Of a stretch of DNA of 44,179 bases, positions 1,142-24,300 are shown piece after piece. How positions within the stretch are numbered: position 1 is the first letter of the stretch; the number at the start of each line of letters is the position of its first letter. The translations under genes and the position numbers were made by a program. This DNA comes from Elusimicrobiales bacterium (lineage in GTDB: Bacteria; Elusimicrobiota; Elusimicrobia; Elusimicrobiales; UBA9959): assembly GCA_023701245.1 (NCBI GenBank), contig JAMPXK010000016.1:1-44179 (forward strand). Reading direction: 5' to 3'. The notes beneath the pieces were generated by a model. The model was not told the origin of the DNA. It saw only the letters and a list, made by a program, of their open reading frames with translations, and made no database searches.

Positions 1142-4100
1142 TTATCTCTCTACCGCCACTTTAAAGCTCTTGCCGCCCTTCCTGTCGCTGGTCTGGATGA
1201 AAGCTATGTAGACGCCGCTGGCCGCCTTGCGCCCGTCGGAGTTGAGACCGTCCCAGTGGGCCATGCCGTTGACGTCGGCGCGCAGGTCGCGCACCAGCTC
1301 GCCCAGGAAGGTGTAGATCTTCACCCGGGCGAAAGGCGTCAGGTTGGTGAAGTGCATCACGTCAGACACGGAATTGGGCCGGTACGGGTTGGGGTAGATC
1401 TTTACGTTGGCCAGGCCGGTCTCGCTGGTGGCCTGCATGAGCTGGAAGGTGGACAGGTGCCAGGTCTGGGCGATGACGCGGTTATTGGCCGTGTCGGAGG
1501 TGGACGGCAGCGGCACCCAGACGCCGTGGACCTCGTCGTAGAGGGCCAGGATGAGCTTGGCCCTGTCCGTGCCCGGCGGCAGGTCCGCCAGGCGGTACGG
1601 CAGGGTTATGGTGATGGCGTCCAGCACCAGCGTGGGGGGGAAATGGGTTATGGCCAGGCCTATGCCGGTAGGGGAAAGCACCGAGACGGCCGACACCGGC
1701 GGCGCGAAAGAGGAGACCGGCTGCAGGCGCAGGCGGGTAGAACTGCCGATGGCGCCGCGCGGCAGGTGCACGGAGATGAGGCCGTAGGAGGTCTGCAGCG
1801 AAATAAAACTGTCCTGCAGCGCCACGGCGTTGAGCAGCGAGAAGAGCAGGGTCCTGGTGGAGGCGGCGGTCTCGAAGGGCGAGAGGGCGCCGGTCTGGCC
1901 CCGGGCCTGGATGCGGGCGAAATAAGTGGTGTCTATCATCAGGTCGCCGAAGGCGCAGGAGAGCGCCCGCACGGAGAGCGAGGAGTTGATGACCGAGAAA
2001 TCCGCCATGGTGGAGAGCTGCACGTTGTAGACGGTATGCGAGGAATTGTTATTGGCGGCCCAGTTTACCGTGAAGCCGTCTGTCATGGGCGCCGAGTAGG
2101 TCTGTTCCTGCGTCAGGATATAGGCGGTAGCCGGCAGCGTCAGCGCGGCGCCCAGGTCCACGGGCGGGTCGGTGGCCACGCCGGTCAGGTTCAGCGCCGC
2201 CACCCGCATATAGTAGCTGGCGTTGGAGACCATGCCGTCGAAAACGGCGTAGAGGTTGGTGGTGACGGAGGAAAGCACCGTGCCGGAGAAGTCGGTGTTG
2301 GAGGAGATCTGGGCGCGGTACCAGGTGCCGCCGGGGTTGGTGCCGGGCAGCCAGTCTGCCGTCATGGAGGAAACCCCGACGTCGGAGAAGGCCGCGTAGG
2401 CCGGGTGGAAGGCGCCGGTGGCCATGGAGGAGAAGACGACTTCCGGCGAGGCCCGGTTGAACCGGTTGTAGACCGTCACCACCGGGTAATAGGTGGTGTT
2501 GGGCACCAGCCCGGAGAAGGTGGCCGAAGACAGGAACGTGGCCGAAGAATGCGTCGGCGGCGAGAAGTCCGAATTGGAGGAAATGGTCACCAGGTACAGC
2601 GTGTCGGCCGGGTTGGCGTTGGACAGCCAGGTCAGGTTGAGCGTGTAAGGGGTGATGGCGAAGCTTTGCGGCGTGGGCCGGTTGGCCAGCGTGGCGGTGG
2701 CGTAGGCAAGGGCGTAGTTGGCCGTGCCCTCGTCGTTAAGGGACCCCGCCCGCACGTAATAGGTGGTGTTGGGGGCCAGCCCGGTCAGGATCAGCCCGCT
2801 GTCGGCGTAGGACGCGCTCTGCGTGGAGAACAGGACCGTGGTAAAGGCCTGGGTGGTGGCCGCTTCAAGCAGGTAGGTGTCGGCGGTGGCCCGCTGCGGT
2901 TCCGCCGCCAGCGGGGTCCAGCCGAAGGCCACGCTGGAGTAGAAAACTCCGGCGAAAGGCGGTGAGTCCAGCGTCAGGGGCAGCGGCAGGGTGTGGCGCC
3001 AGGCCGGGGTGGTATTGGCGTACACTGTGGTGCCCCCGTAAAGCGCGCCGGCCCTGAAGTAATACCGGGTATTCTCCTCCAGGCCCGAGATGGTCAGCGT
3101 GGTCAGGTTTACGTCCGTGGTGGCGGAACTGCGGTGCACGAAGTTGAAGAACTGGTAGGTGGAAGCCTCTACCATGTAGCTGTCGCCTCCGGCGTCGGCG
3201 CTGAAGTAGACCGTGGCGCTGGATTCCCAAACCTGGCCCAGGGCGGGGCCGTAGGGGGAGGGGGGCAGGGCGGTGCTGGTCGGGTCCAGGGCGGAGTAAT
3301 TGGGGGTGCCGGTCCAGTTGAGGGTGGCCAGGCGCAGGTTGTAGGGCGTGTTGGGCTTCAGCCCGGCTATCGCCAGGGAGCCCGCCTGCGGGTCCGCTGT
3401 GGAAGAGGAAAGGACCACGCCCGTTCCCCCGAAGGCGGTGGAAGAGGCTTCCAGCCGGTACCCCTCGCAGGTGGCTTTCTGCGGCGACGCCGGCAGGGGG
3501 TAGAGGAAGACGGTGATGGCGTCGGTCTCCGGCACTATGGTGGTGAGGTTCCCGGACGGCGGGTTGGCCAGCGTGATGGAAGAGATCCTGGAGGTGTAGT
3601 TGCGGTCGAAGTTGAAGTTGAGCGACGAGGTCCTGAAATAGTAGGTGGTGTTGGGGTCCAGCCCGGAGACTGACAGGGAATTGTCGGCCATGTCGTAAGT
3701 AACGGAAGACGGCTCCGTAAGCGAGGCGGAGAAAGCGTAGGTGGACGCCTCCAGGCGGTAGCCCAGCGCTTCGCCTCCGGCCAGCGCGGTCCAGGCCAGC
3801 GCCGCTTCGTCTTCCGTCAGGGAGGCCAGGGTAAAACCGGCTATCTTTGGGGCCAGCGTAGTAAAGCGCCGGGTGTCGGCCAGGTTGGAAGCCCCGTTCC
3901 AGTTCAGGGTGCCTACCCTGTAGTAATAGGTGGTGTTGAGGTTGAGCGGGGAGGCGGTTACGGCCGCGGCGGCCGCCGCGGAGGTTTCCCAGTAGGTGCT
4001 GGTGGGGGTGATAAGTTCCGCCGCGGTGGTGGAGATGTGCAGGCGGTAGCCTTCTGATTTAAGGGCCTGTATGGTGGCGTGGTTGACGGCCTGCCAGTTA

Positions 4101-4783
4101 ATGGTGACGCTGCTTTCGTACACCGTTTCCCCTATCCCGGAGAGCTTGAGGGCCAGCGTGGCGGTGGAGATGTCGGAGGTAAAGCCGGTGGCGGTGCCGG
4201 CCACCCCGCGCGCCCTGACGCGGAAGTAGTAGGTGGTGTTGGCGTTAAGGCCGCCCAGCGTTACCGGCGGGTAGCCCTTGGGGGCGCTGACCGAGCCGGT
4301 AAAGGAGGCGTTGTCCGCGTAGACCAGGTCATAGCGGGTCCAGTCGGGGTTGCCGTTCACGTCCCAACCGATCTGCGCCCAGGCCGTATAGGAGGACTCG
4401 GCCGTAAAGTAGGAGGAAATGAAGTAGGGCGCCGACGGCGCGGCCACAAGGGTGGAAGAGGAGATGGTGTTGAGGGCGTAGGCTGCGTCGTTCTCGGCTG
4501 CACGCTTTACGCGGAAATAATAGGTGGTATTCTGGTCCAGGTTGATGTAGGTGGTGGTGTTGGCGGCCGGGACGCCTGTGGAGAGCACCGCTGAAAAATT
4601 GGAGGCGGTGGAGATGGCGACGATGAAGGGGGCGCCAGTATCGGTCCAGCTGAAAGAAAGGGTGTCGAGCGCGGCCCCGGCCTTCTGCGGGTTCAGCGCG
4701 GTCTGGGCAAAAGCCGGGGCGCCCGCCAGAAGCAGGAGCGCACAGGTGAAAAAAGCCCGTAAAGGCCTGAGCCGCGGGAACAT
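1142..4783 (-). CDS. Large exported fibronectin-III-like repeat protein with FlgD/T9SS-like C-terminal domain
   Basis: 1213 residues. Signal peptide at 1-26 (AFA|Q). About ten repeats of roughly 95 residues follow, each ending in a variant of L-x-NTTYYFRV, the conserved strand of fibronectin type III modules; at DNA level this gives a recurring aggtggtgtt word. Residues ~985-1115 form a different beta-rich domain (SLQTSYGLISVHLPRGAIG). The last ~90 residues (VKIYPNPYRPN, VKIYTFLGELVRDL, HWDGLNSDGRKAASGVY, KVAVER) match the FlgD-like/Por-secretion-tail fold used for C-terminal export signals. Probably a surface adhesin or scaffold. The ATG lies 7 bases after a -10 box, so the message may be leaderless. 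Ligand unknown. Confidence 0.85.
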   Translation of the reverse strand: MFPRLRPLRAFFTCALLLLAGAPAFAQTALNPQKAGAALDTLSFSWTDTGAPFIVAISTASNFSAVLSTGVPAANTTTYINLDQNTTYYFRVKRAAENDAAYALNTISSSTLVAAPSAPYFISSYFTAESSYTAWAQIGWDVNGNPDWTRYDLVYADNASFTGSVSAPKGYPPVTLGGLNANTTYYFRVRARGVAGTATGFTSDISTATLALKLSGIGETVYESSVTINWQAVNHATIQALKSEGYRLHISTTAAELITPTSTYWETSAAAAAAVTASPLNLNTTYYYRVGTLNWNGASNLADTRRFTTLAPKIAGFTLASLTEDEAALAWTALAGGEALGYRLEASTYAFSASLTEPSSVTYDMADNSLSVSGLDPNTTYYFRTSSLNFNFDRNYTSRISSITLANPPSGNLTTIVPETDAITVFLYPLPASPQKATCEGYRLEASSTAFGGTGVVLSSSTADPQAGSLAIAGLKPNTPYNLRLATLNWTGTPNYSALDPTSTALPPSPYGPALGQVWESSATVYFSADAGGDSYMVEASTYQFFNFVHRSSATTDVNLTTLTISGLEENTRYYFRAGALYGGTTVYANTTPAWRHTLPLPLTLDSPPFAGVFYSSVAFGWTPLAAEPQRATADTYLLEAATTQAFTTVLFSTQSASYADSGLILTGLAPNTTYYVRAGSLNDEGTANYALAYATATLANRPTPQSFAITPYTLNLTWLSNANPADTLYLVTISSNSDFSPPTHSSATFLSSATFSGLVPNTTYYPVVTVYNRFNRASPEVVFSSMATGAFHPAYAAFSDVGVSSMTADWLPGTNPGGTWYRAQISSNTDFSGTVLSSVTTNLYAVFDGMVSNASYYMRVAALNLTGVATDPPVDLGAALTLPATAYILTQEQTYSAPMTDGFTVNWAANNNSSHTVYNVQLSTMADFSVINSSLSVRALSCAFGDLMIDTTYFARIQARGQTGALSPFETAASTRTLLFSLLNAVALQDSFISLQTSYGLISVHLPRGAIGSSTRLRLQPVSSFAPPVSAVSVLSPTGIGLAITHFPPTLVLDAITITLPYRLADLPPGTDRAKLILALYDEVHGVWVPLPSTSDTANNRVIAQTWHLSTFQLMQATSETGLANVKIYPNPYRPNSVSDVMHFTNLTPFARVKIYTFLGELVRDLRADVNGMAHWDGLNSDGRKAASGVYIAFIQTSDRKGGKSFKVAVER

Positions 4784-11531: not shown

Positions 11532-11560
11532 TTGACAAAAGGCGAACTTCCCTTTATCCT
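11532..11560 (+). promoter_or_regulatory. Sigma-70 promoter of the TPR-kinase gene
   Basis: Perfect -35 TTGACA (11532-11537), 17-base spacer, -10 TATCCT (11555-11560). It decides the gene start: an upstream in-frame TTG is part of the -35 box, so translation must begin at the ATG at 11592. Confidence 0.85.
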
Positions 11561-11591
11561 ATCTTGTGAGATAAGTGTATCCTTGGTATTT

Positions 11592-14048
11592 ATGAGGAAG
11601 ATACTTTCTGTACTGGTTCTCCTTTCCCTGGCGGCAGGCGCCCTGCCGGCCCCGCTATTGGCGGAGGAAGCCTCGTTGGGCGGCGCCGGGATCTCCGCCG
11701 GACCGGTGCTTGCGCCTCCTGCCGCTTCCCCTGTCGTCCCGGATAGTCCTCCCCAGGGCCGCGACGACCTGTCTATTTTCAAACGCAACGCGTCCCACAG
11801 GCCCCTGCGTTCGGCCGAGGCCCTGCTGCGCCTGCTGGACGGGCTGAAGCCGGAAGAGGTGGAGGAATTCCGGCGGCAGCATTGCGGGACCATAGCCGAA
11901 ATGATGGACGCCCTGGACCGGGCGGCGGCAGCCGGGCGGGTAAGCCGCGAAGCTTACGAGGAATTCTCCTCCAGATTTTCCAGGTTCGAGATCCCCACGG
12001 TACAGGCCCGGGCGCAGGAGCCCGCTGCCGGCGGCCAGCGGCCGGATCCCAGGCGTAACCCGGTAGTGGCGCTTGTGGACATCCGCGTCGCTGCTATTTC
12101 AGGCGACAAGGAAAAGACCGAGCAGGCTATAGCCGCCGCCAGCGCCGCTTACCCGCAGAATCCCTCCGTGCAGGCGGCCGCGGCCTCCTATTACAACGAG
12201 ACCAAAAATTACGCCATGGCGGAAAAGACCGCCACCGGCGCCATAGCGCTGGACGATAAGTCCCCCGAAGCCTACAAGGCCCGGGCGCTGGCGCGGGCTT
12301 CGCTGGAAGACCGTAAAGGCGCCATAGAAGACATCAAGAAGGCCATGGCCATAGACCCGCAGGACGAGTCCGCGCGGGTGCTCTCCGCCCTGCTGGAAAG
12401 CCGCAAGAACGCGGACAGCCTGAAGTCCGTGGCTTCCGTGGAAGATATCAAGCGCGCCCTGGGCGCCTATGACGAGGCCCCCGGGGCCGTGGAAGGCGGC
12501 GCCGCCGGTTCCGCCGGGGCCGGCCTGGCCGAAGAAGCCGCGCCCGCGCCGGACTTCGCCAAGTCCAAGGCTTACCTTAAAACCGCTCTCGCCAAGAACC
12601 GCCTGGGCGATTACGAAAGCGCCATCCGCTACGCCGGCCTGGCCCTGGAGAAAGACCCCGCCAACACCGAGGCCTACCTGGAGCGGGCCAACGCCTATAA
12701 TTTCCTGGGCCGTTACGACGACGCCGTGCGCGACGCCACCCACGTCATAGGCAAGGACCCCGCCAACCTGCAGGCTTTCAACATGCGCGCCTGGGCGCTG
12801 AACCGCAAGGGTCAAGCCGCGGCCGCGGAATCCGACGCCAGCCGTGCCATAGGGCTCAACCCCGGTTTCGCCGACGCCTGGTTCAACCGCGCCCTCGCCT
12901 ATGAAAAGCAGGGCGATTACCGGCGCATGCTGGAGGATTTCAAGCAGGCGGCTTCCTTGAGCGGGGCCTACTCGGCCCGCTACCAGGACGCGGTGGCCCA
13001 GTACGGCCCGCGCGTGCCAGGCTTCGCCGGCCAGGGTGCGGCGCTGAAGGCCGCCCGCGAGGCGGCCGGGGAGACGCCGGTCCGCGGCAAGCGCAACCCG
13101 ATGCGCCGCTTCCTGCTCACCCTTTTCTTCACGCTAACCGGCGGCGCCCTGGTGGCCATGGGCCTTATCCACGTGGTCTCTTCCGGCCGCGAGCCGGCCG
13201 CGGCCCGCGCCCGCGCCACGCATCCCGACGTGCTTTCCCCGTCGGTCTTCTACGAGGGAGTGGCTACCGGCAAGTACCGGATAGAACGCAAGCTGGGCGA
13301 GGGGGCCATGGGCGTGGTCTACGAGGCCGAAGACCAGTCGCTGGGCCGGAAAGTGGCCATCAAGAAGATGGGCGATGAGATAAAGGTGAACGACCGGGAA
13401 AAGCAGCGCTTCCTGGAGGAGGCGCGCACCGTGGCGCTGCTGCACCACCCCAACATAGTGGAGATCTATACTATTTTCGAAGAGGAAGCCAATATCTACC
13501 TGGTGTTCGAGTTCGTGGACGGGGTCACGCTGGACAAGGTGCTGGACAAGGAAGCCCGCCTGCCTTTCGACAGGGCCGCGCAGATCTTCGGCGAGACCGC
13601 CGGGGCGCTGGCTTACGCGCACTCCAAGAACATCGTGCACCGCGACCTGAAGCTTTCCAACCTTATGCTCTCCGCCGAAGGCTGGGTCAAGGTTATGGAC
13701 TTCGGCCTGGCCAGGCGCGCCAAGGAATCCATGGCCCGGGCTTCCAGGGAAGTGGTGGGCTCGCCCGCCTACATGGCCCCGGAGCAGGAGCTGGGGGCTT
13801 CGTCTCCGGAATCGGATATCTATTCGCTAGGCGTCTGTTTCTACGAGGCTCTCAGCGGCGTGCTGCCTTTCCAGGGGCCGGATTTCCACTACCAGAAGAC
13901 CCACCGCTCCTACCAGCGCCTTTCCGAGATGGTGCCCGGGCTGCCGCAGGGCGTGGACGCCGTGGTGGCCAAGTGCCTGTCCCCCTTGCCCGAAGAAAGG
14001 TTCGCCAGCGCCGAGGAATTCCGGCGCGCCCTCGACGCCATAGTCTGA
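11592..14048 (+). CDS. Exported TPR domain-membrane helix-Ser/Thr protein kinase
   Basis: 818 residues. Signal peptide 1-24 (PAPLLAEE). Residues ~150-470 hold two sets of tetratricopeptide repeats (KTATGAIALDDKSPEAYKAR; YAGLALEKDPANTEAYLERA; DASRAIGLNPGFADAWFNRA) separated by an Ala/Gly linker. A membrane helix lies at ~505-528 (LLTLFFTLTGGALVAMGLI). The C-terminal kinase (~561-815) is complete: glycine loop LGEGAMGVVYEAE, VAIKK lysine, HRDLKLSN catalytic loop (Asp ~685), DFGLA (~703), SPAYMAPEQ. With a cleaved signal peptide, TPRs would be outside and the kinase inside, the reverse order of PknB-type kinases. No ribosome site precedes the ATG. Confidence 0.9.
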   Translation: MRKILSVLVLLSLAAGALPAPLLAEEASLGGAGISAGPVLAPPAASPVVPDSPPQGRDDLSIFKRNASHRPLRSAEALLRLLDGLKPEEVEEFRRQHCGTIAEMMDALDRAAAAGRVSREAYEEFSSRFSRFEIPTVQARAQEPAAGGQRPDPRRNPVVALVDIRVAAISGDKEKTEQAIAAASAAYPQNPSVQAAAASYYNETKNYAMAEKTATGAIALDDKSPEAYKARALARASLEDRKGAIEDIKKAMAIDPQDESARVLSALLESRKNADSLKSVASVEDIKRALGAYDEAPGAVEGGAAGSAGAGLAEEAAPAPDFAKSKAYLKTALAKNRLGDYESAIRYAGLALEKDPANTEAYLERANAYNFLGRYDDAVRDATHVIGKDPANLQAFNMRAWALNRKGQAAAAESDASRAIGLNPGFADAWFNRALAYEKQGDYRRMLEDFKQAASLSGAYSARYQDAVAQYGPRVPGFAGQGAALKAAREAAGETPVRGKRNPMRRFLLTLFFTLTGGALVAMGLIHVVSSGREPAAARARATHPDVLSPSVFYEGVATGKYRIERKLGEGAMGVVYEAEDQSLGRKVAIKKMGDEIKVNDREKQRFLEEARTVALLHHPNIVEIYTIFEEEANIYLVFEFVDGVTLDKVLDKEARLPFDRAAQIFGETAGALAYAHSKNIVHRDLKLSNLMLSAEGWVKVMDFGLARRAKESMARASREVVGSPAYMAPEQELGASSPESDIYSLGVCFYEALSGVLPFQGPDFHYQKTHRSYQRLSEMVPGLPQGVDAVVAKCLSPLPEERFASAEEFRRALDAIV

Positions 14049-14112: not shown

Positions 14113-14739
14113 TCAGTTGAAGAAAGCTTTCTTTACACCGTCTATGATGAACTGCACCGCGGTGGCCGCGAGGATAAGGCCCATCAGGCGCGTGGTGATG
14201 TTCATGGCGATAGGGTTTATGATAGAGGCCTTTTTAATGGCCACGCGGAAAATATAGTAGCAGGCCAGGCCCACCGCCAGGAAGAGCAGCAGCAGCACGG
14301 CGTCGTAAACCAGGGTCTTGGCCTTGGATTCCAGCAGTATGGCGGTGGTGATGGCGCCGGGGCCAGACAGCATGGGAATGGCCAGGGGGGTTATGGAGAC
14401 GTCGGCCTTGGCCGTGCCTTCGGCCTTTTCCTCTTCCGTCTCCTGCACGGCGGAGCGCTTGGCGCGCAGGCTGTCCAGCGAGACCAGCAGCAGCAGCAGG
14501 CCGCCGGCCATCTGGAACGCGGCGATGGTGATGCCGAAGATCCGGAACAGGGCGTTGCCGCTGGCGGCGAAAACTATCAGCACGCCGGTGGCGGTAAGAC
14601 AGGCCGTGCGCGCCATCTTGAGGCGTTCGGCCTCGGTATTGTCCGGGGTCATGGCGAAAAACGTGGGCACCGCCGCCAGGGGGTTGATGATGGCGAACAG
14701 CGAACCGGCGCTCATCAGGGCGAAGTTGAGTATTTCCAT
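14113..14739 (-). CDS. MarC/UPF0056 family membrane protein
   Basis: 208 residues from the ATG at 14739; a TTG nine bases upstream is possible but lacks a ribosome site. Six hydrophobic segments are visible, with family hallmarks SLFAIINPLAAVPTFFAMT near the N-terminus, FQMAGGLLLLLVSLDSL, and PLAIPMLSGPGAITTAILL in the second half. MarC-like proteins (YchE, YhgN) are inner-membrane proteins, some linked to amino-acid transport, most with no proven substrate. A charged loop (QETEEEKAEGTAKAD) lies between the two halves. Downstream of the pseudo-phosphoesterase gene, with a possible -10 TATACT (14758-14753) of its own. Confidence 0.9.
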   Translation of the reverse strand: MEILNFALMSAGSLFAIINPLAAVPTFFAMTPDNTEAERLKMARTACLTATGVLIVFAASGNALFRIFGITIAAFQMAGGLLLLLVSLDSLRAKRSAVQETEEEKAEGTAKADVSITPLAIPMLSGPGAITTAILLESKAKTLVYDAVLLLLFLAVGLACYYIFRVAIKKASIINPIAMNITTRLMGLILAATAVQFIIDGVKKAFFN

Positions 14740-14762
14740 ATAAGGCAACGCTAGTATATAAA

Positions 14763-17510
14763 TTACCGCTTCAGCTTGAAAAGGCGGGAGTATTCCAGGG
14801 CGAAGCCGACGGTGAGGTTGGCGGCGGACCCGGGAAGTTTCTTGCCGGTAGCCAGGAAGTAGGTGAGAAAAGGGCTGAGCATGATATCCCGGTAAAGGCG
14901 CGTGCTGAGGCGCAGGTTAACTTCCAGGCGCTCTTTGAGGTCGTATACCGTGTCGAAACGGCTGCGGGCGAAGTTGCGGTAGTTGGCGTCCGCGCTCAGC
15001 AGCAGGGCCGTGCCAGGCAGCGGGGCGTAGACGCGCAGGCCGGCCTCGGCCGCGTACTTGGTGCGGGCCGGAGTGTAGGTATAGATGTTCTCCGTGGTCA
15101 GGCCGGCGTAGAGTTCCTGCAGCGCCGCCCCTTCGTAAAGTTTAAGGCCGGCGCTGGCGCGCAGCACCTTGCGCAGCGGCTGCTCCTCGGCGCGGGAGAA
15201 TTCGGTGTCGTAGGCGGCCGAGGCGTAGGGGCCTACTACCAGCGGTCCCAGCAGCCCGTTGTAACTCTTCATGCGGTACACCAGCTGCGACTCCAGGATG
15301 AGCTGGTCAACGCTCTCCGTGGTCAGCCTCGGCTGGCCGCGCGGCCGCAGTACCGTCTTGCCGTAGTCCGCCGAGATCCCCGAATCGAAACGGAACCTGC
15401 CCGAGTAATACTCCGAGAAAAGGCGCGCGGAACCCTGCATGCGGGTCTGGTTGATGGCGCCCAGGCGCGAGTCTATGCCCGCATAGTCAGACGTGCCGGT
15501 CACTTCCGTATTCACCGTTTCCAGCGAGAGGCTGCGCAGGTTTATCCGCCACAGGTCCCGCTGTTCCGGTTTGTTCTTAATGGCCCTGGTTACCGCCGCT
15601 TCCCAGTCTTTGCGGGAGGGGGCGGCGGTGCGCAGGGCGTCCAGCGCGCTCACCACCGCCGCGTGCAGCGTGGCCGGGGCGCCGGCCGGCGGCTGGGCGG
15701 GCCGCAGGAAGGGCTTGCCCTCCGCCAGATCCGCGGTGAGCGCCGTAAGGTACAGCTCCCCGTCGTTTATGGGCAGGCCGCCTACCCGGCCCGCGTCGTC
15801 TATGCCGGAGAAGGCGTAGTAGTCGCTCCCGCCGTAATTCGCCGGGGTGTAGTAAGTATCCGGGCTCCTGGCCGGCACCTGGCTGCCGCGCAGTTCGTTT
15901 ATGAAGCGGCCGGGGGCCAGCACCAGTTTCACGGGTTTATCCGCGCCCAGCCAGGTCTTTACCATCGCCGTGGGGACATCGCCCAGCATGGAGCTGGAAA
16001 AAGGTTTTACCTTGAGCACGGAGACTTCGGCCTTGAACTTGGCGCGCAGGGTGCCGGCGGCCAGGTTGAAGAATTCCGGCACGCCGTAGGCCGGCCCGCC
16101 GTCGCCAGCCGGCCTTTCGCGCAGGTCGGGCAGCAGGGTGTCGCCCGAGCCCAGGAAGTGGCGGACTATCCTTTCCTTCATGTAAAGCTGTTCCCGGTAG
16201 TACAGCGGCTCCCGGCCGTCTTCCGGCGCGGGCAGGGCCTCAACGGCGGTCAGCGCGGAACGCCGCCCGAACTCCAGGCGCAGCAGCCCGGAGCCGCTGG
16301 AATCGGGGAACACCGTAAGGGCCGGGCCGGTGTGCACTTCCTTGTCCCACTTGCGCAGTTCCACCCTGGTGCGCCTGCCGGAGGCGTTGTCCCAGGTCTT
16401 GGGGCCTATGACCGCGTCTATGCCGCGCGCGTTGAGCAGCCAACCCAGTTCGTCCTTCTTCAGCATCGGGGCCACCGCTATCACCACTTTGGCTTTCAGG
16501 GCGCCGCGCAGTTCGTTGACCAGGGTATAGAACGCTTTCTGGTCGCGGGGATCGCTGACGGAGAGGGGCGAGCCTGCCAGGTCGGCCAGGGAGGCGGAGT
16601 TGGAGGGGACGAAGGAGATAAAGGCCACGGTAGCCCCGCCCAGTTTGCGCAGGACGTAGGGCTTGATGACTTTTGCCAGCTCAGGGTCCGAGACCTGGAC
16701 GTTGGAACACAGGAGTTCCGGGCCGGCAGTGGAGATCTTCAGGGAGCCGTCCCGGCTCCATTGCCAGAGGTTGTTGAGGTCGTTGTGGTCCAGGGCGGCG
16801 ATGTCGGTGCCGGCGCCCCGAAGGTAGCCCAGGGTCCGCTCCGGGCCCGCCTTGAGCACCTGGCCCGTCAGGGCGCCGCCGAGGCCCAGGCTGATCAGCG
16901 CCGCGCTCTTCTTGTCCGCGGCTTCCTCCAGCATCCTGCGGCTGAAGCCGTTGAGGCCCAGCGGGATGGAAAGCCCGGTGAAAAGGATGTTCCGGCCTTC
17001 GGTAACGGCGTAGTGGCGCATTTCCAGGGTAGGTTCCCACAGCCGCTTCTCCGTCCTGGACGGAATGTGCAGGACCCTGAACTTTATACCCGAGGGGGAA
17101 ACCGCCGAGAGCAGCGCTGCCGAAGTCCTTTCCACGCTGAAGTACGCGCTCATGGCCTCTTCTATCACGGGCGTAAGAGTGTCCAGCAGGTCCTGCGGCA
17201 TCAGCACCAGCGAATGCCAGCCCTCTATCAGTTCCACTTCGGCTTCGAGGGCGTAGCTGGTGGTGCGGGTGAGTTCTTCGGCGGTCAGGTCCTCCGGCCT
17301 GTCTATCACGAACCTGGAGCCGTTGGTGTAGGTAATGCTGGTGGCGGCGCTGGAGAGGCGGATGGAGGCGGTGGAACCGGTGATGTCCTCTATGACCTGG
17401 GAGAGGTCGAAGCTTATGCGGTAGTCGTGGTCGAAATAGTAGACCGAAGCGGACTGGGCGCGGGCGACGGCGGGGAGCAGGGTGAGGAGCAGGCACAGCA
17501 GCCGTTTCAT
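14763..17510 (-). CDS. Exported degenerate 5'-nucleotidase-like domain fused to probable outer-membrane barrel
   Basis: 915 residues. Signal peptide 1-18 (ARA|Q). Residues ~155-395 follow the order of motifs of UshA-type 5'-nucleotidases, but every metal site is altered: the initial D-x-H is replaced in ILFTGLSIPLG, the GNHE motif becomes ALDHND, and the GHxH motif becomes VIGPKTWDN; the framing blocks LLCSNVQV, IKPYVLRKLGGATVAFISF and KVVIAVAP remain. It is therefore probably a catalytically dead fold used for binding. Residues ~640-915 are strand-rich with aromatic girdles (YYSGRFRFDSGISADYG, VVGPYASAAYDTEF, ALLLSADANYRNFA, LTVGFALEYSRLF), consistent with a beta-barrel. A -10 TAATCT lies 7 bases before the ATG. 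Confidence 0.7.
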   Translation of the reverse strand: MKRLLCLLLTLLPAVARAQSASVYYFDHDYRISFDLSQVIEDITGSTASIRLSSAATSITYTNGSRFVIDRPEDLTAEELTRTTSYALEAEVELIEGWHSLVLMPQDLLDTLTPVIEEAMSAYFSVERTSAALLSAVSPSGIKFRVLHIPSRTEKRLWEPTLEMRHYAVTEGRNILFTGLSIPLGLNGFSRRMLEEAADKKSAALISLGLGGALTGQVLKAGPERTLGYLRGAGTDIAALDHNDLNNLWQWSRDGSLKISTAGPELLCSNVQVSDPELAKVIKPYVLRKLGGATVAFISFVPSNSASLADLAGSPLSVSDPRDQKAFYTLVNELRGALKAKVVIAVAPMLKKDELGWLLNARGIDAVIGPKTWDNASGRRTRVELRKWDKEVHTGPALTVFPDSSGSGLLRLEFGRRSALTAVEALPAPEDGREPLYYREQLYMKERIVRHFLGSGDTLLPDLRERPAGDGGPAYGVPEFFNLAAGTLRAKFKAEVSVLKVKPFSSSMLGDVPTAMVKTWLGADKPVKLVLAPGRFINELRGSQVPARSPDTYYTPANYGGSDYYAFSGIDDAGRVGGLPINDGELYLTALTADLAEGKPFLRPAQPPAGAPATLHAAVVSALDALRTAAPSRKDWEAAVTRAIKNKPEQRDLWRINLRSLSLETVNTEVTGTSDYAGIDSRLGAINQTRMQGSARLFSEYYSGRFRFDSGISADYGKTVLRPRGQPRLTTESVDQLILESQLVYRMKSYNGLLGPLVVGPYASAAYDTEFSRAEEQPLRKVLRASAGLKLYEGAALQELYAGLTTENIYTYTPARTKYAAEAGLRVYAPLPGTALLLSADANYRNFARSRFDTVYDLKERLEVNLRLSTRLYRDIMLSPFLTYFLATGKKLPGSAANLTVGFALEYSRLFKLKR

Positions 17511-21287: not shown

Positions 21288-24233
21288 TCAGGCCGCCACG
21301 GCGCCGCGGCCTTCCGAGCCGTCTATGCGGATATCCAGCGGCTTGTCGAAACGCAGGTGGCGGATATAGGTCCCCTCAGCTACCGGCGCCTGCGCTTTTA
21401 TGCGGTCCCAGTTTATGAAGGAATCCGGGCCGGTCTCGTGGACGGTCAGGTAGCCCATGCCCAGCGAGGTGACGTTATGGAAGAAGTGCGTGCCGTAGGA
21501 CGGGTCCACTATGAAGTCCCCGTAGGCCGCTTCCACTATGACCCTGGAGGCCGAGATGTGGTTCCACTTCACGGGGATGCCCAGCAGAGGGTCGCTGGAC
21601 CCCCAGCGGCCGGGACCTATGATCACGTAGGAGCGGCCTTCCTGGCGCAGGCGGGCGTTCAGTTCGCCTATCTCCGCGGCTATGTCGCGGGTCTTGAGGG
21701 CGTCGAACTTTTCGGGGATAACGTAGATCAGGTCTGAGATATCCTTGTGGGCGCCGTTGCCCAGCGCCTTGGCGCTCAGGCACAACAGGCTCTCCGGCTG
21801 CAGGTCCCGGAGCGTCACTTTTTTTACGGGGCTTCGCGAGACCATGGGCCGCATCTGCAGGATGTTGAAGGAGGCAGCGCCGCTCTCCCGGTCGTAATCG
21901 CAGGCGAATTCCATCTCTATGTTGCAGCCCATCGCCTCCTTGCCCAGGGCCGAGGCGGTGCTCAGGATCTCCGCCAGCGGCAGGGCTTCGTTCTTAAGGA
22001 TGGGGGCGAAAGTGACCAGCCTGCGCCCCTGTTCCGAAATACCGTCGTAAACCCGGTCGTTCTCGGCCGAATAGGCGCTGCCGACCAGCTCCAGCGACCC
22101 GTCGGCCTCCGCTTCCTCGATGCCGGCCCCGGCCAGCGCCGGCTCCTCGTCGTAGCGCAGCGGGTCCGCCCCGGCGCCCAGCTTAAGGGTTATCAGTTTT
22201 TTCTGCGAGTTGGTGAGGAAATCCGTCAGCGTGGAGAACTGGTGCAGGTTGTGCGGGTGGGCGGGGGAGAAGCGCAGGGCGTTGTAGCCCTCCACTATGG
22301 TCTTGCCCAGGCCCAGGGCGATATGGGCTATGGGGTCCTCAGCCTCCAGCGGCGGCACCGGGTAATAGTTGTAGGACTGCATCACCCCGGCGAAGGCGGG
22401 ATAGAAGCGGCCCTCCTTGTAACGGCGCCCGACCACTTTCTGGATCACCACCGCCATCTTTTCCTCTTCTATGAACAGCGGGTTCATTTTGCGGTAGGCG
22501 CGGGCTTCGCGTGAGAACACCGAAGCATAGATGAACTTTACCGCCCGCTCCAGTTCGGCCAGGCGCACGCCGGGGTCCGGGCTGTCGTTGGGGAGCATGT
22601 AGGTCTTGTAGACGCCGGCGAAAGGCTGGGTCTTGGAGTCCTCCAGCAGCGAAGAAGAGCGCACCGCCAGCGGGCCTTCGAGTTTTTCCACCAGGGCGGC
22701 CAGGTCGCGGGTCACGTAGTCCGGCAGGCGGGCCCTTTCGAAGATGGCGGCGGTCTCCTCGCTGGTGTGGTTCTCGTTGATGACCGAGTCCAGGCCGTTC
22801 TGCTCCATGAAGAAATCGAAAACGTCGGTGGCTATCACCACCGTGTTTGGTACGGCCACCGTTACCCCGGGCCAGCGGGTCTCCAGGTCGCTCTTCGAGA
22901 GCAGGAAATCCACGAAAGCGAGGCCCCGGGCCTTGCCGCCTATGGAACCGGAACCTATTTTGGCGAAGGGGGTGGAATCGTCGAAGAGCTTGCGGTCGAA
23001 CTTGAGCACCGTGCCCAGCTGGGTCTTGTAGATGAACTGGTGCATCGTCTCGATAAGGTATTTGCGCAGCTGCTCGGGGTTGCTGAATTCCGAGATCTTC
23101 TTGGGCCGGATATGGTAGGCCATCTCGAATTCGGTACGGGCGAACAGCCACTTGGAAAAGTGGTTGCGGCCGGCGTGGTAGAGTACGGACTCTATGGGCA
23201 CCAGCTTCAGCAGCTTGAGCATGGTGTTGAGGTCCGCGGCCCGGGCCAGTTCCGCGCCGTTCTGGTCGGTAAAGACGAAGTCGCCGAACCCGAAGTAGCG
23301 AAGGATGAAGGCGCGCAGCTGCTTGGACAGGTCCGGCGCGGCCTTGTGCACGAAAGCCGCGCCCAGCCCGGCGGCGGGGCCGGCCATGCGCGCGTTGGAG
23401 GACTGCAGCAGCACGGGCATGTCGGGGTTCTCGGCCTTTATCCGGCGGGTCAGCTCCAGGCCGGCTTCGGGGTGGCAGGCGCCGCCCATCGGGTATTCCA
23501 CGTCGCTTATGACGCCCAGCAGGTTGCCCTTGTATTTTTCATAGAGGGCCCAGGCTTCCTCGTAAGTGCTGCAGAACAGGATCTTGGGGCGGGCGCGCAG
23601 GCGTAAATTCTTCTTGGCCGGGTTCAGCTCTTCCGCCATCACTATCTGCGTCTGCTTCATCAGCTCGGTGTAGATGAGCGGGAGGTAGGTGGAGTAGAAC
23701 TTTATGTTATCTTCCACCAGCAGCACGGCCTGCACGCCTACTTTGGAGTCCTGGTCGAAGTTCCTGGCGTCCTCTATGATATTGATGATAGCCGAGAAGA
23801 TGCGGGTGTCGCCGCTCCAGAGGCAGATGCCGTCGGCCAGCCGGCGGGCTTCGTCCAGGACGTTCTTGATATCCTGCACGTTGAAGGACAGCAGCACTAC
23901 CGGCAGGCCGGGGCGCCCTTCCTTAAGGCCGCGGAAAAAATCCGCCATGTCCGTTTCGCCCACCTGGATCATGGCGATGACCAGGTCGAAGGACCCGCGC
24001 TTGAGCTTTTCCATGGCTTCTTCGGCGGTGGCCACGCGGGTTATCTTGGGGGTGGCGCGGCCGGAATCCGGAAGTTCTCCGAAGAGGGCCTCGTTGAGGC
24101 GGTCGTCGTCGGCCAGCAGGAAGGAATCGTAAAGGGAGGCCACCATCAGGACGTTCTTGATCCTGTGCGGCATCAGTTTTTCGAAGCCGCCGAATTCCAC
24201 TTCGTAGTCGCCTGGTTTTTTTGATGTCGGCAT
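21288..24233 (-). CDS. Two-receiver PEP/pyruvate-binding (PPDK N-terminal-like) signalling protein
   Basis: 981 residues from the ATG at 24233 (an ATG at 24239 would add two). Residues ~20-150 are a receiver-like domain whose phospho-acceptor appears lost (FDLVIAMIQVGE). A second receiver (~165-320) keeps VLLVEDN, Asp in GVISDVEYPMGG and Lys in VHKAAP. A linker (SVLYHAGRNHFSKWLFARTE) leads to an ATP-grasp domain like the N-terminus of PEP synthase/PPDK: IGSGSIGGKARGLAFVDFL, LAVRSSSLLEDSKTQPFAG, MAVVIQKVVGRRY, FNILQMRPMV. The phosphohistidine and PEP barrel domains are absent. The tail carries VIIGPGRWGSSDPLLGIPV. Possibly a phosphorelay-controlled kinase or binding protein. Confidence 0.82.
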   Translation of the reverse strand: MPTSKKPGDYEVEFGGFEKLMPHRIKNVLMVASLYDSFLLADDDRLNEALFGELPDSGRATPKITRVATAEEAMEKLKRGSFDLVIAMIQVGETDMADFFRGLKEGRPGLPVVLLSFNVQDIKNVLDEARRLADGICLWSGDTRIFSAIINIIEDARNFDQDSKVGVQAVLLVEDNIKFYSTYLPLIYTELMKQTQIVMAEELNPAKKNLRLRARPKILFCSTYEEAWALYEKYKGNLLGVISDVEYPMGGACHPEAGLELTRRIKAENPDMPVLLQSSNARMAGPAAGLGAAFVHKAAPDLSKQLRAFILRYFGFGDFVFTDQNGAELARAADLNTMLKLLKLVPIESVLYHAGRNHFSKWLFARTEFEMAYHIRPKKISEFSNPEQLRKYLIETMHQFIYKTQLGTVLKFDRKLFDDSTPFAKIGSGSIGGKARGLAFVDFLLSKSDLETRWPGVTVAVPNTVVIATDVFDFFMEQNGLDSVINENHTSEETAAIFERARLPDYVTRDLAALVEKLEGPLAVRSSSLLEDSKTQPFAGVYKTYMLPNDSPDPGVRLAELERAVKFIYASVFSREARAYRKMNPLFIEEEKMAVVIQKVVGRRYKEGRFYPAFAGVMQSYNYYPVPPLEAEDPIAHIALGLGKTIVEGYNALRFSPAHPHNLHQFSTLTDFLTNSQKKLITLKLGAGADPLRYDEEPALAGAGIEEAEADGSLELVGSAYSAENDRVYDGISEQGRRLVTFAPILKNEALPLAEILSTASALGKEAMGCNIEMEFACDYDRESGAASFNILQMRPMVSRSPVKKVTLRDLQPESLLCLSAKALGNGAHKDISDLIYVIPEKFDALKTRDIAAEIGELNARLRQEGRSYVIIGPGRWGSSDPLLGIPVKWNHISASRVIVEAAYGDFIVDPSYGTHFFHNVTSLGMGYLTVHETGPDSFINWDRIKAQAPVAEGTYIRHLRFDKPLDIRIDGSEGRGAVAA

Positions 24234-24271
24234 AGTCATTATTCTACAAAAACATGGCCTTGTCTCTAACC

Positions 24272-24300
24272 TTGACAACGGGGGGAACGGGGGCTATACT
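24272..24300 (+). promoter_or_regulatory. Sigma-70 promoter of the tandem exported pair
   Basis: Perfect -35 TTGACA (24272-24277), 17-base spacer, -10 TATACT (24295-24300); start expected near 24307, with a GGAGG ribosome site before the ATG at 24363. Confidence 0.88.

What the first reader, a model, noticed from the sequence alone, without database searches (positions are those of the whole stretch)
14763..17510. Dead 5'-nucleotidase-like domain fused to an outer-membrane barrel
The order of UshA-family motifs is kept but the metal-binding residues are replaced at each recognisable motif (ALDHND for GNHE, VIGPKTWDN for GHxH). The C-terminal third looks like a barrel. A pseudo-enzyme anchored in the outer membrane could be a receptor or scaffold not described before.
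Basis: partly seen in the sequence, partly recalled or inferred. Interest (0 to 1): 0.6.

Follow-up and report, generated by a model that had tools for sequence, protein, structure and literature searches.

The report
Dead nucleotidase on outer-membrane barrel
A little-known group of bacteria (Elusimicrobiota) carries a protein in which a 5'-nucleotidase that has lost its whole metal-binding active site is joined to a 12-stranded outer-membrane barrel; it appears to have arisen once, is kept by selection across the class, and may be a new kind of envelope scaffold or gate whose job is still unknown.

Summary
ORF 14763-17510 (minus strand, 915 aa) has a Sec-type signal peptide, an N-terminal domain without known relatives (~145 residues), both domains of a UshA/CD73-type 5'-nucleotidase (residues ~166-632), and a 12-stranded outer-membrane barrel (653-912). 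AlphaFold2 gives pLDDT 86.7; Foldseek returns UshA and CD73 at probability 1.00; a family profile finds 5'-nucleotidases in the PDB at E 1.7e-18.

Across 54 barrel-fused homologs, at most 2 of 8 UshA metal-ligand positions remain (40 have none), with no conserved substitutes. The nucleoside-stacking residues are gone too. All 24 barrel-less nucleotidases compared (23 from the same class, plus UshA) keep 8/8. On a tree the fused proteins lie on one side of one branch, the least-decayed member (L061) nearest the intact enzymes. dN/dS of 0.10-0.40 in every domain argues against a decaying gene.

So it is a conserved pseudoenzyme-barrel fusion; I found no description of it in the papers searched. 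Periplasmic scaffold or gate is my preferred function, but no partner or ligand was found, and the topology (periplasmic or surface-displayed) is inferred, not shown.

The parts
14763..17510 (-). whole gene, 915 aa: signal peptide, N-terminal domain, pseudo-5'-nucleotidase, 12-stranded barrel
   Evidence: ORF list; AF2 model pLDDT 86.7; homologs
17457..17510 (-). Sec-type signal peptide, residues 1-18 (MKRLLCLLLTLLPAVARA)
   Evidence: read from the sequence; similar hydrophobic N-termini in homologs
17016..17456 (-). N-terminal alpha/beta domain, residues 19-165, no known relative
   Evidence: no PDB match at E<=10, no Pfam match below E 0.08; confidently modelled; absent from L061
16221..17015 (-). 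metallophosphoesterase-type domain with no active-site ligands left, residues 166-430
16956..16976 (-). GLSIPLG (179-185), place of the DxHG motif; alignment uncertain
16869..16889 (-). LGLGGAL (208-214), place of UshA D84 (bridging metal ligand), here Gly
16770..16796 (-). ALDHNDLNN (239-247), place of GNHEFD; UshA N116/H117/D120 become H/N/N
16458..16478 (-). AVAPMLK (345-351), place of UshA H217, here Met
16389..16409 (-). IGPKTWD (368-374), place of GGHSQD; UshA H252/Q254 become K/W
15615..16220 (-). [quoted passage not shown]
   Evidence: Pfam PF02872 in 12 of 56 homologs, best E 4.9e-12; hhalign; residues
15555..15614 (-). linker with helix 633-645 into the barrel
   Evidence: DSSP of the model; linker lengths in homologs
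14766..15554 (-). 12-stranded outer-membrane barrel, residues 653-912, and C-terminal tail; weak DUF3078 match
   Evidence: DUF3078 in 28 of 54 members at E<=1, best E 1.4e-8
14113..14748 (-). MarC/NAAT-family membrane protein, 14 bp downstream on the same strand; synteny kept only in near relatives
   Evidence: NCBIfam TIGR00427 E 2.6e-51; synteny

Best explanation
The gene encodes an outer-membrane protein in which a UshA/CD73-type 5'-nucleotidase became permanently joined to a 12-stranded barrel, apparently once and early in the class, and lost catalysis. Shown here by computation: two-domain nucleotidase fold, loss of the metal ligands with no conserved replacement, loss of substrate-stacking residues, barrel, single grouping on a tree, purifying selection. 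Inferred: the dead domain sits in the periplasm directly under the barrel and serves as a scaffold, plug or gate that binds a protein or a non-nucleotide ligand, while the barrel, the best-conserved part and the part that also exists alone, is the membrane anchor or channel. I put about 0.9 on the pseudoenzyme-barrel identity and about 0.4-0.5 on the periplasmic scaffold/gate mechanism; the confidence given is for the whole statement.
For: Family profile hits 5'-nucleotidases in the PDB, E 1.7e-18. Foldseek top hits are 2ush, 2z1a, CD73 and NadN at probability 1.00. The ligand table shows 54 of 54 fused members with at most 2/8 ligands, against 24 of 24 barrel-less homologs with 8/8. On the tree the fused set is one side of one branch, SH-aLRT 99. 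Fold-core residues are kept (N270, D365, E495, G534, G569, Y587 essentially invariant) while ligand columns vary freely. dN/dS is 0.10-0.40 in all four domains. The barrel is confidently predicted alone and in the full model. Barrel-only homologs of ~290-340 aa occur in families f2 and f12. Short turns alternate with longer loops so that both barrel ends face the periplasm, the usual OMP topology (inference from strand positions).
Against: No partner gene is conserved beyond local synteny, so there is no direct evidence of a scaffold role. Coordinates and PAE of the model could not be inspected, so the position of the domain relative to the barrel is unknown. The nucleotidase part evolves faster than the barrel (54-57% against 72% mean identity within the genus), which also fits a weakly constrained spacer.
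Confidence: 0.45

Rival explanations
1. Autotransporter-like display: the dead nucleotidase is a passenger moved through or with the 12-stranded barrel to the cell surface, where it acts as an adhesin, receptor or decoy.
For: Order signal peptide, globular passenger, helix, C-terminal 12-stranded barrel is that of type V secretion; the best Foldseek hit of the barrel is the NalP translocator, and EstA also appears.
Against: No Pfam autotransporter match in any member. The barrel also occurs alone with only a signal peptide. The segment between the last nucleotidase helix and strand 1 is only about 15-25 residues in most members and shortest in L061, tight for a pore-spanning segment though not impossible. 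Foldseek hits are low-TM matches to barrels in general.
Confidence: 0.2
2. The nucleotidase part is a functionless spacer or relic, and only the barrel matters.
For: The barrel is the most conserved part and exists alone.
Against: dN/dS of about 0.13-0.40 in both nucleotidase domains, open frames in nearly all homologs over the class, and retention of the complete two-domain fold at ~20% identity.
Confidence: 0.15
3. A nucleotide or nucleoside receptor that feeds the barrel, in the manner of UshA working with the Tsx channel.
For: Nucleotidase ancestry; the barrel has 12 strands; one barrel-only homolog has a weak Tsx match (E 0.00044); intact 5'-nucleotidase genes lie ~2 kb from barrel-only genes in 2 of 12 loci.
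Against: UshA R410, F429, N431 and F498 equivalents are lost and not conserved; the Tsx match is out of register (barrel end against profile middle) and unique; Tsx is not among the 50 listed Foldseek hits; the two linked loci belong to one genus and share the same intervening genes.
Confidence: 0.08
4. The protein is an enzyme with an altered, metal-free or differently liganded active site.
For: An acidic residue at the E118 position is kept (D or E throughout), and many members keep isolated D/E/H residues near the site.
Against: No metal-capable residue is conserved at the aligned ligand positions; the conserved positions are Gly, Pro and fold-core residues; the catalytic His117-Asp120 dyad is kept only in L061.
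Confidence: 0.06

Closest known systems
UshA / CD73 / NadN 5'-nucleotidases (PF00149 + PF02872)
   Same: Two-domain fold, order of motifs, fold-core residues, signal peptide
   Different: Metal ligands, the catalytic dyad and the substrate-stacking residues are lost; extra N-terminal domain; C-terminal barrel
DUF3078 (PF11276) proteins
   Same: 28 of 54 barrel segments match at E<=1, best 1.4e-8; among the 14 control genomes the family rings only in Bacteroides
   Different: The window protein itself scores 13-17 bits, below the curated 25; the model covers only 92 positions and its function is unknown
Type V autotransporters (NalP, EstA)
   Same: C-terminal 12-stranded barrel after a globular domain
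   Different: No sequence match to the autotransporter family; barrel exists alone; short linker
B-subunits of eukaryotic replicative DNA polymerases (inactivated calcineurin-like phosphoesterase domains turned scaffold; PMC4996933)
   Same: Same superfamily of phosphoesterases turned into a non-catalytic part, thought to be a scaffold
   Different: Different branch (no 5_nucleotid_C domain), intracellular, no barrel; an analogy only

Membership tests
UshA-type 5'-nucleotidase | two-domain fold (metallophosphoesterase + 5_nucleotid_C) | tested here: met
UshA-type 5'-nucleotidase | dimetal site (D41, H43, D84, N116, H217, H252, Q254) | tested here: not met
   aligned residues are G, H, M, K, W at D84, N116, H217, H252, Q254; D41/H43 are I/L or a gap
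UshA-type 5'-nucleotidase | catalytic dyad H117-D120 | tested here: not met
   N and N
UshA-type 5'-nucleotidase | substrate residues R410, F429, N431, F498 | tested here: not met
   S, A, K, D, not conserved in the family; alignment less sure in this domain
UshA-type 5'-nucleotidase | hydrolase activity | not testable with these tools
   needs purified protein
DUF3078 barrel | Pfam score above the curated cut-off | tested here: inconclusive
   window below cut-off; some homologs above it
Type V autotransporter | C-terminal 12-stranded barrel | tested here: met
Type V autotransporter | match to the autotransporter barrel family | tested here: not met
   no Pfam match in any member
Type V autotransporter | pore-spanning helix and surface passenger | tested here: inconclusive
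   helix 633-645 precedes the barrel, linker short; coordinates not available
Tsx nucleoside channel | sequence or fold match to Tsx | tested here: not met
   one weak, out-of-register match in 54 members; not among the listed Foldseek hits

The most novel reading that the evidence does not exclude
A class-wide family of outer-membrane channels whose periplasmic gate or ligand-sensing domain was recruited from a secreted 5'-nucleotidase by one ancient fusion, with catalysis lost and a new N-terminal domain added; L061 would preserve an intermediate stage.
Probability: 0.3. Interest if true: 0.65.

Novelty: new variant of a known kind. Interest (0 to 1): 0.52.

Why it matters
Dead enzymes reused as scaffolds are known inside cells, but I found no account of one built into an outer-membrane barrel. 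The family offers a natural series: intact nucleotidases in the same class and in the same genome, a least-decayed fused form (L061), and fully dead fused forms kept under selection across the class. It points to an unexplained envelope function in a phylum whose outer membrane is little studied.

Tried and rejected
Decaying pseudogene: rejected by dN/dS and by the wide conservation of open frames. Replacement metal site: no conserved candidates. Tsx-like nucleoside channel: only one weak, out-of-register match. Genomic context: MarC adjacency holds only in near relatives; prc and clpB genes precede it in some f7 genomes; nothing class-wide. Fused-versus-split test with barrel-only loci: an intact 5'-nucleotidase lies ~2 kb away in 2 of 12 loci, both of one genus, too weak to use. 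N-terminal domain: no PDB or credible Pfam relative. first mis-scored four loci, because a second ORF in each overwrote the main one; one search corrects it. Paper searches found no description; the library holds open-access papers only.

Full report
What is there. The ORF at 14763-17510 on the minus strand encodes 915 residues. Searches of whole genomes found full-length homologs at 79% down to about 20% identity in seven family-level groups of the same class (f1, f2, f5, f7, f8, f10, f28), and barrel-only homologs of about 290-340 residues in f2 and in f12, which lies outside the class. Two of the nearest named relatives are Elusimicrobia bacteria GWA2_62_23 and GWA2_61_42.

Fold. An alignment of 56 sequences (A1) gives a profile that hits 5'-nucleotidases in the PDB at E 1.7e-18, including UshA, CD73, NadN and Thermus 5'-nucleotidase. 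HHalign aligns it with E. coli UshA over residues 194-591, E 4e-10. AlphaFold2 gives pLDDT 86.7 and pTM 0.72. Foldseek against the PDB returns 2ush, 2z1a and CD73 structures at probability 1.00 over about 500 columns. The TM-scores of 0.4-0.5 on target length are modest, as expected when two domains are rotated against each other (the open and closed UshA forms differ by 96 degrees, PMC8475336). Pfam 5_nucleotid_C is recognised in 12 of 56 members, best E 4.9e-12.

Loss of the active site. Residues at the UshA ligand positions were tabulated for 54 barrel-fused proteins and 24 barrel-less 5'-nucleotidases, namely UshA and 23 from the same class. The barrel-less set keeps 8 of 8 in all 24. The fused set keeps 0 in 40, 1 in 11 and 2 in 3. 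In the window protein D84, N116, H117, D120, H217, H252 and Q254 become G, H, N, N, M, K and W; the D41/H43 motif is not alignable with confidence. Weighted column frequencies show no conserved substitute. What is conserved in the nucleotidase part are glycines, prolines and fold-core residues such as N270, D365, E495, G534, G569 and Y587. UshA R410, F429, N431 and F498 equivalents are lost too, so binding of nucleotides in the old manner is unlikely. The roles of the UshA residues by number are from my own knowledge of the enzyme, not from a tool.

History. In a tree of 82 rows the fused proteins need one change of label, SH-aLRT 99, against a shuffled mean of 23.6 (quick method, long branches noted, root not known). 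L061 (family f10) lies nearest the intact enzymes, keeps YTGDTYG, LDTGN and GSHDFDYG in place of the canonical motifs, and lacks the extra N-terminal domain. It is one gene on a short contig of an incomplete genome and its branch is long, so its reading as an intermediate is a proposal. dN/dS between near relatives is 0.10-0.40 in every domain, with the barrel lowest at 0.10-0.14. The gene is therefore maintained, not decaying.

Barrel. The segment 653-912 is a 12-stranded barrel in the full model and when predicted alone (pLDDT 86.4). Foldseek returns outer-membrane barrels in general, with NalP, OmpG, FapF and EstA among them, at low TM. DUF3078 is matched by 28 of 54 members at E<=1, best 1.4e-8, though the window protein stays below the curated cut-off. 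Turns at one end are short and loops at the other longer, which with 12 strands puts both termini in the periplasm (inference).

Mechanism. My preferred reading is a periplasmic pseudoenzyme domain docked under the barrel, working as scaffold, plug or gate. The identity as a dead nucleotidase joined to a barrel is well supported (about 0.9). The location of the domain and its role are inferred (about 0.4-0.5). Against surface display stand the lack of any autotransporter match, the existence of the barrel alone and a short linker, none of which is decisive. Gene neighbourhoods gave no class-wide partner.

Novelty. Inactivated phosphoesterases as scaffolds are known, for example the B-subunits of eukaryotic DNA polymerases (PMC4996933). 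A dead 5'-nucleotidase built into an outer-membrane barrel was not found in the papers searched, which cover open-access work only. Presence outside Elusimicrobiota was not tested adequately.

Noticed in passing
L069/L070 (G000:C2:20794-24455); also L129, L135, L142: An intact 5'-nucleotidase gene is directly followed by a second 5'-nucleotidase-like gene with 0 of 8 metal ligands (lipoprotein-like signal in the window's own genome). The pair recurs in at least four genomes and the dead partners form one clade: a second, separate dead nucleotidase lineage in this group.
   Followed up: partly
L061:969-4163 (G245:C43): PdxA runs without a stop codon into the least-decayed nucleotidase-barrel protein (one 1065-residue open frame); a true fusion or an assembly error.
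   Followed up: no
window 1142-4783, minus: 1213-residue protein of fibronectin type III repeats with weak matches at its end to type IX secretion C-terminal domains (PorZ, Por_Secre_tail).
   Followed up: no
window 21288-24278, minus: 996-residue protein with a response-regulator receiver followed by the ATP-binding domain of PEP synthase (PPDK_N); kept in near relatives.
   Followed up: no
window 11532-14048, plus: TPR repeats followed by a PknB-like Ser/Thr kinase domain at the C-terminus; synteny kept in near relatives.
   Followed up: no
L087, L088, L089, L090: In f7 genomes the pseudonucleotidase-barrel gene follows a tail-specific protease (prc) and/or a ClpB-like ATPase gene on the same strand.
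   Followed up: partly
L154:4230-8848 and L157:7929-12547: Barrel-only genes lie about 2 kb from an intact-looking 5'-nucleotidase, with a pyruvate-kinase-like and an alanyl-tRNA-editing-like gene between (those two named by reading, not searched).
   Followed up: partly
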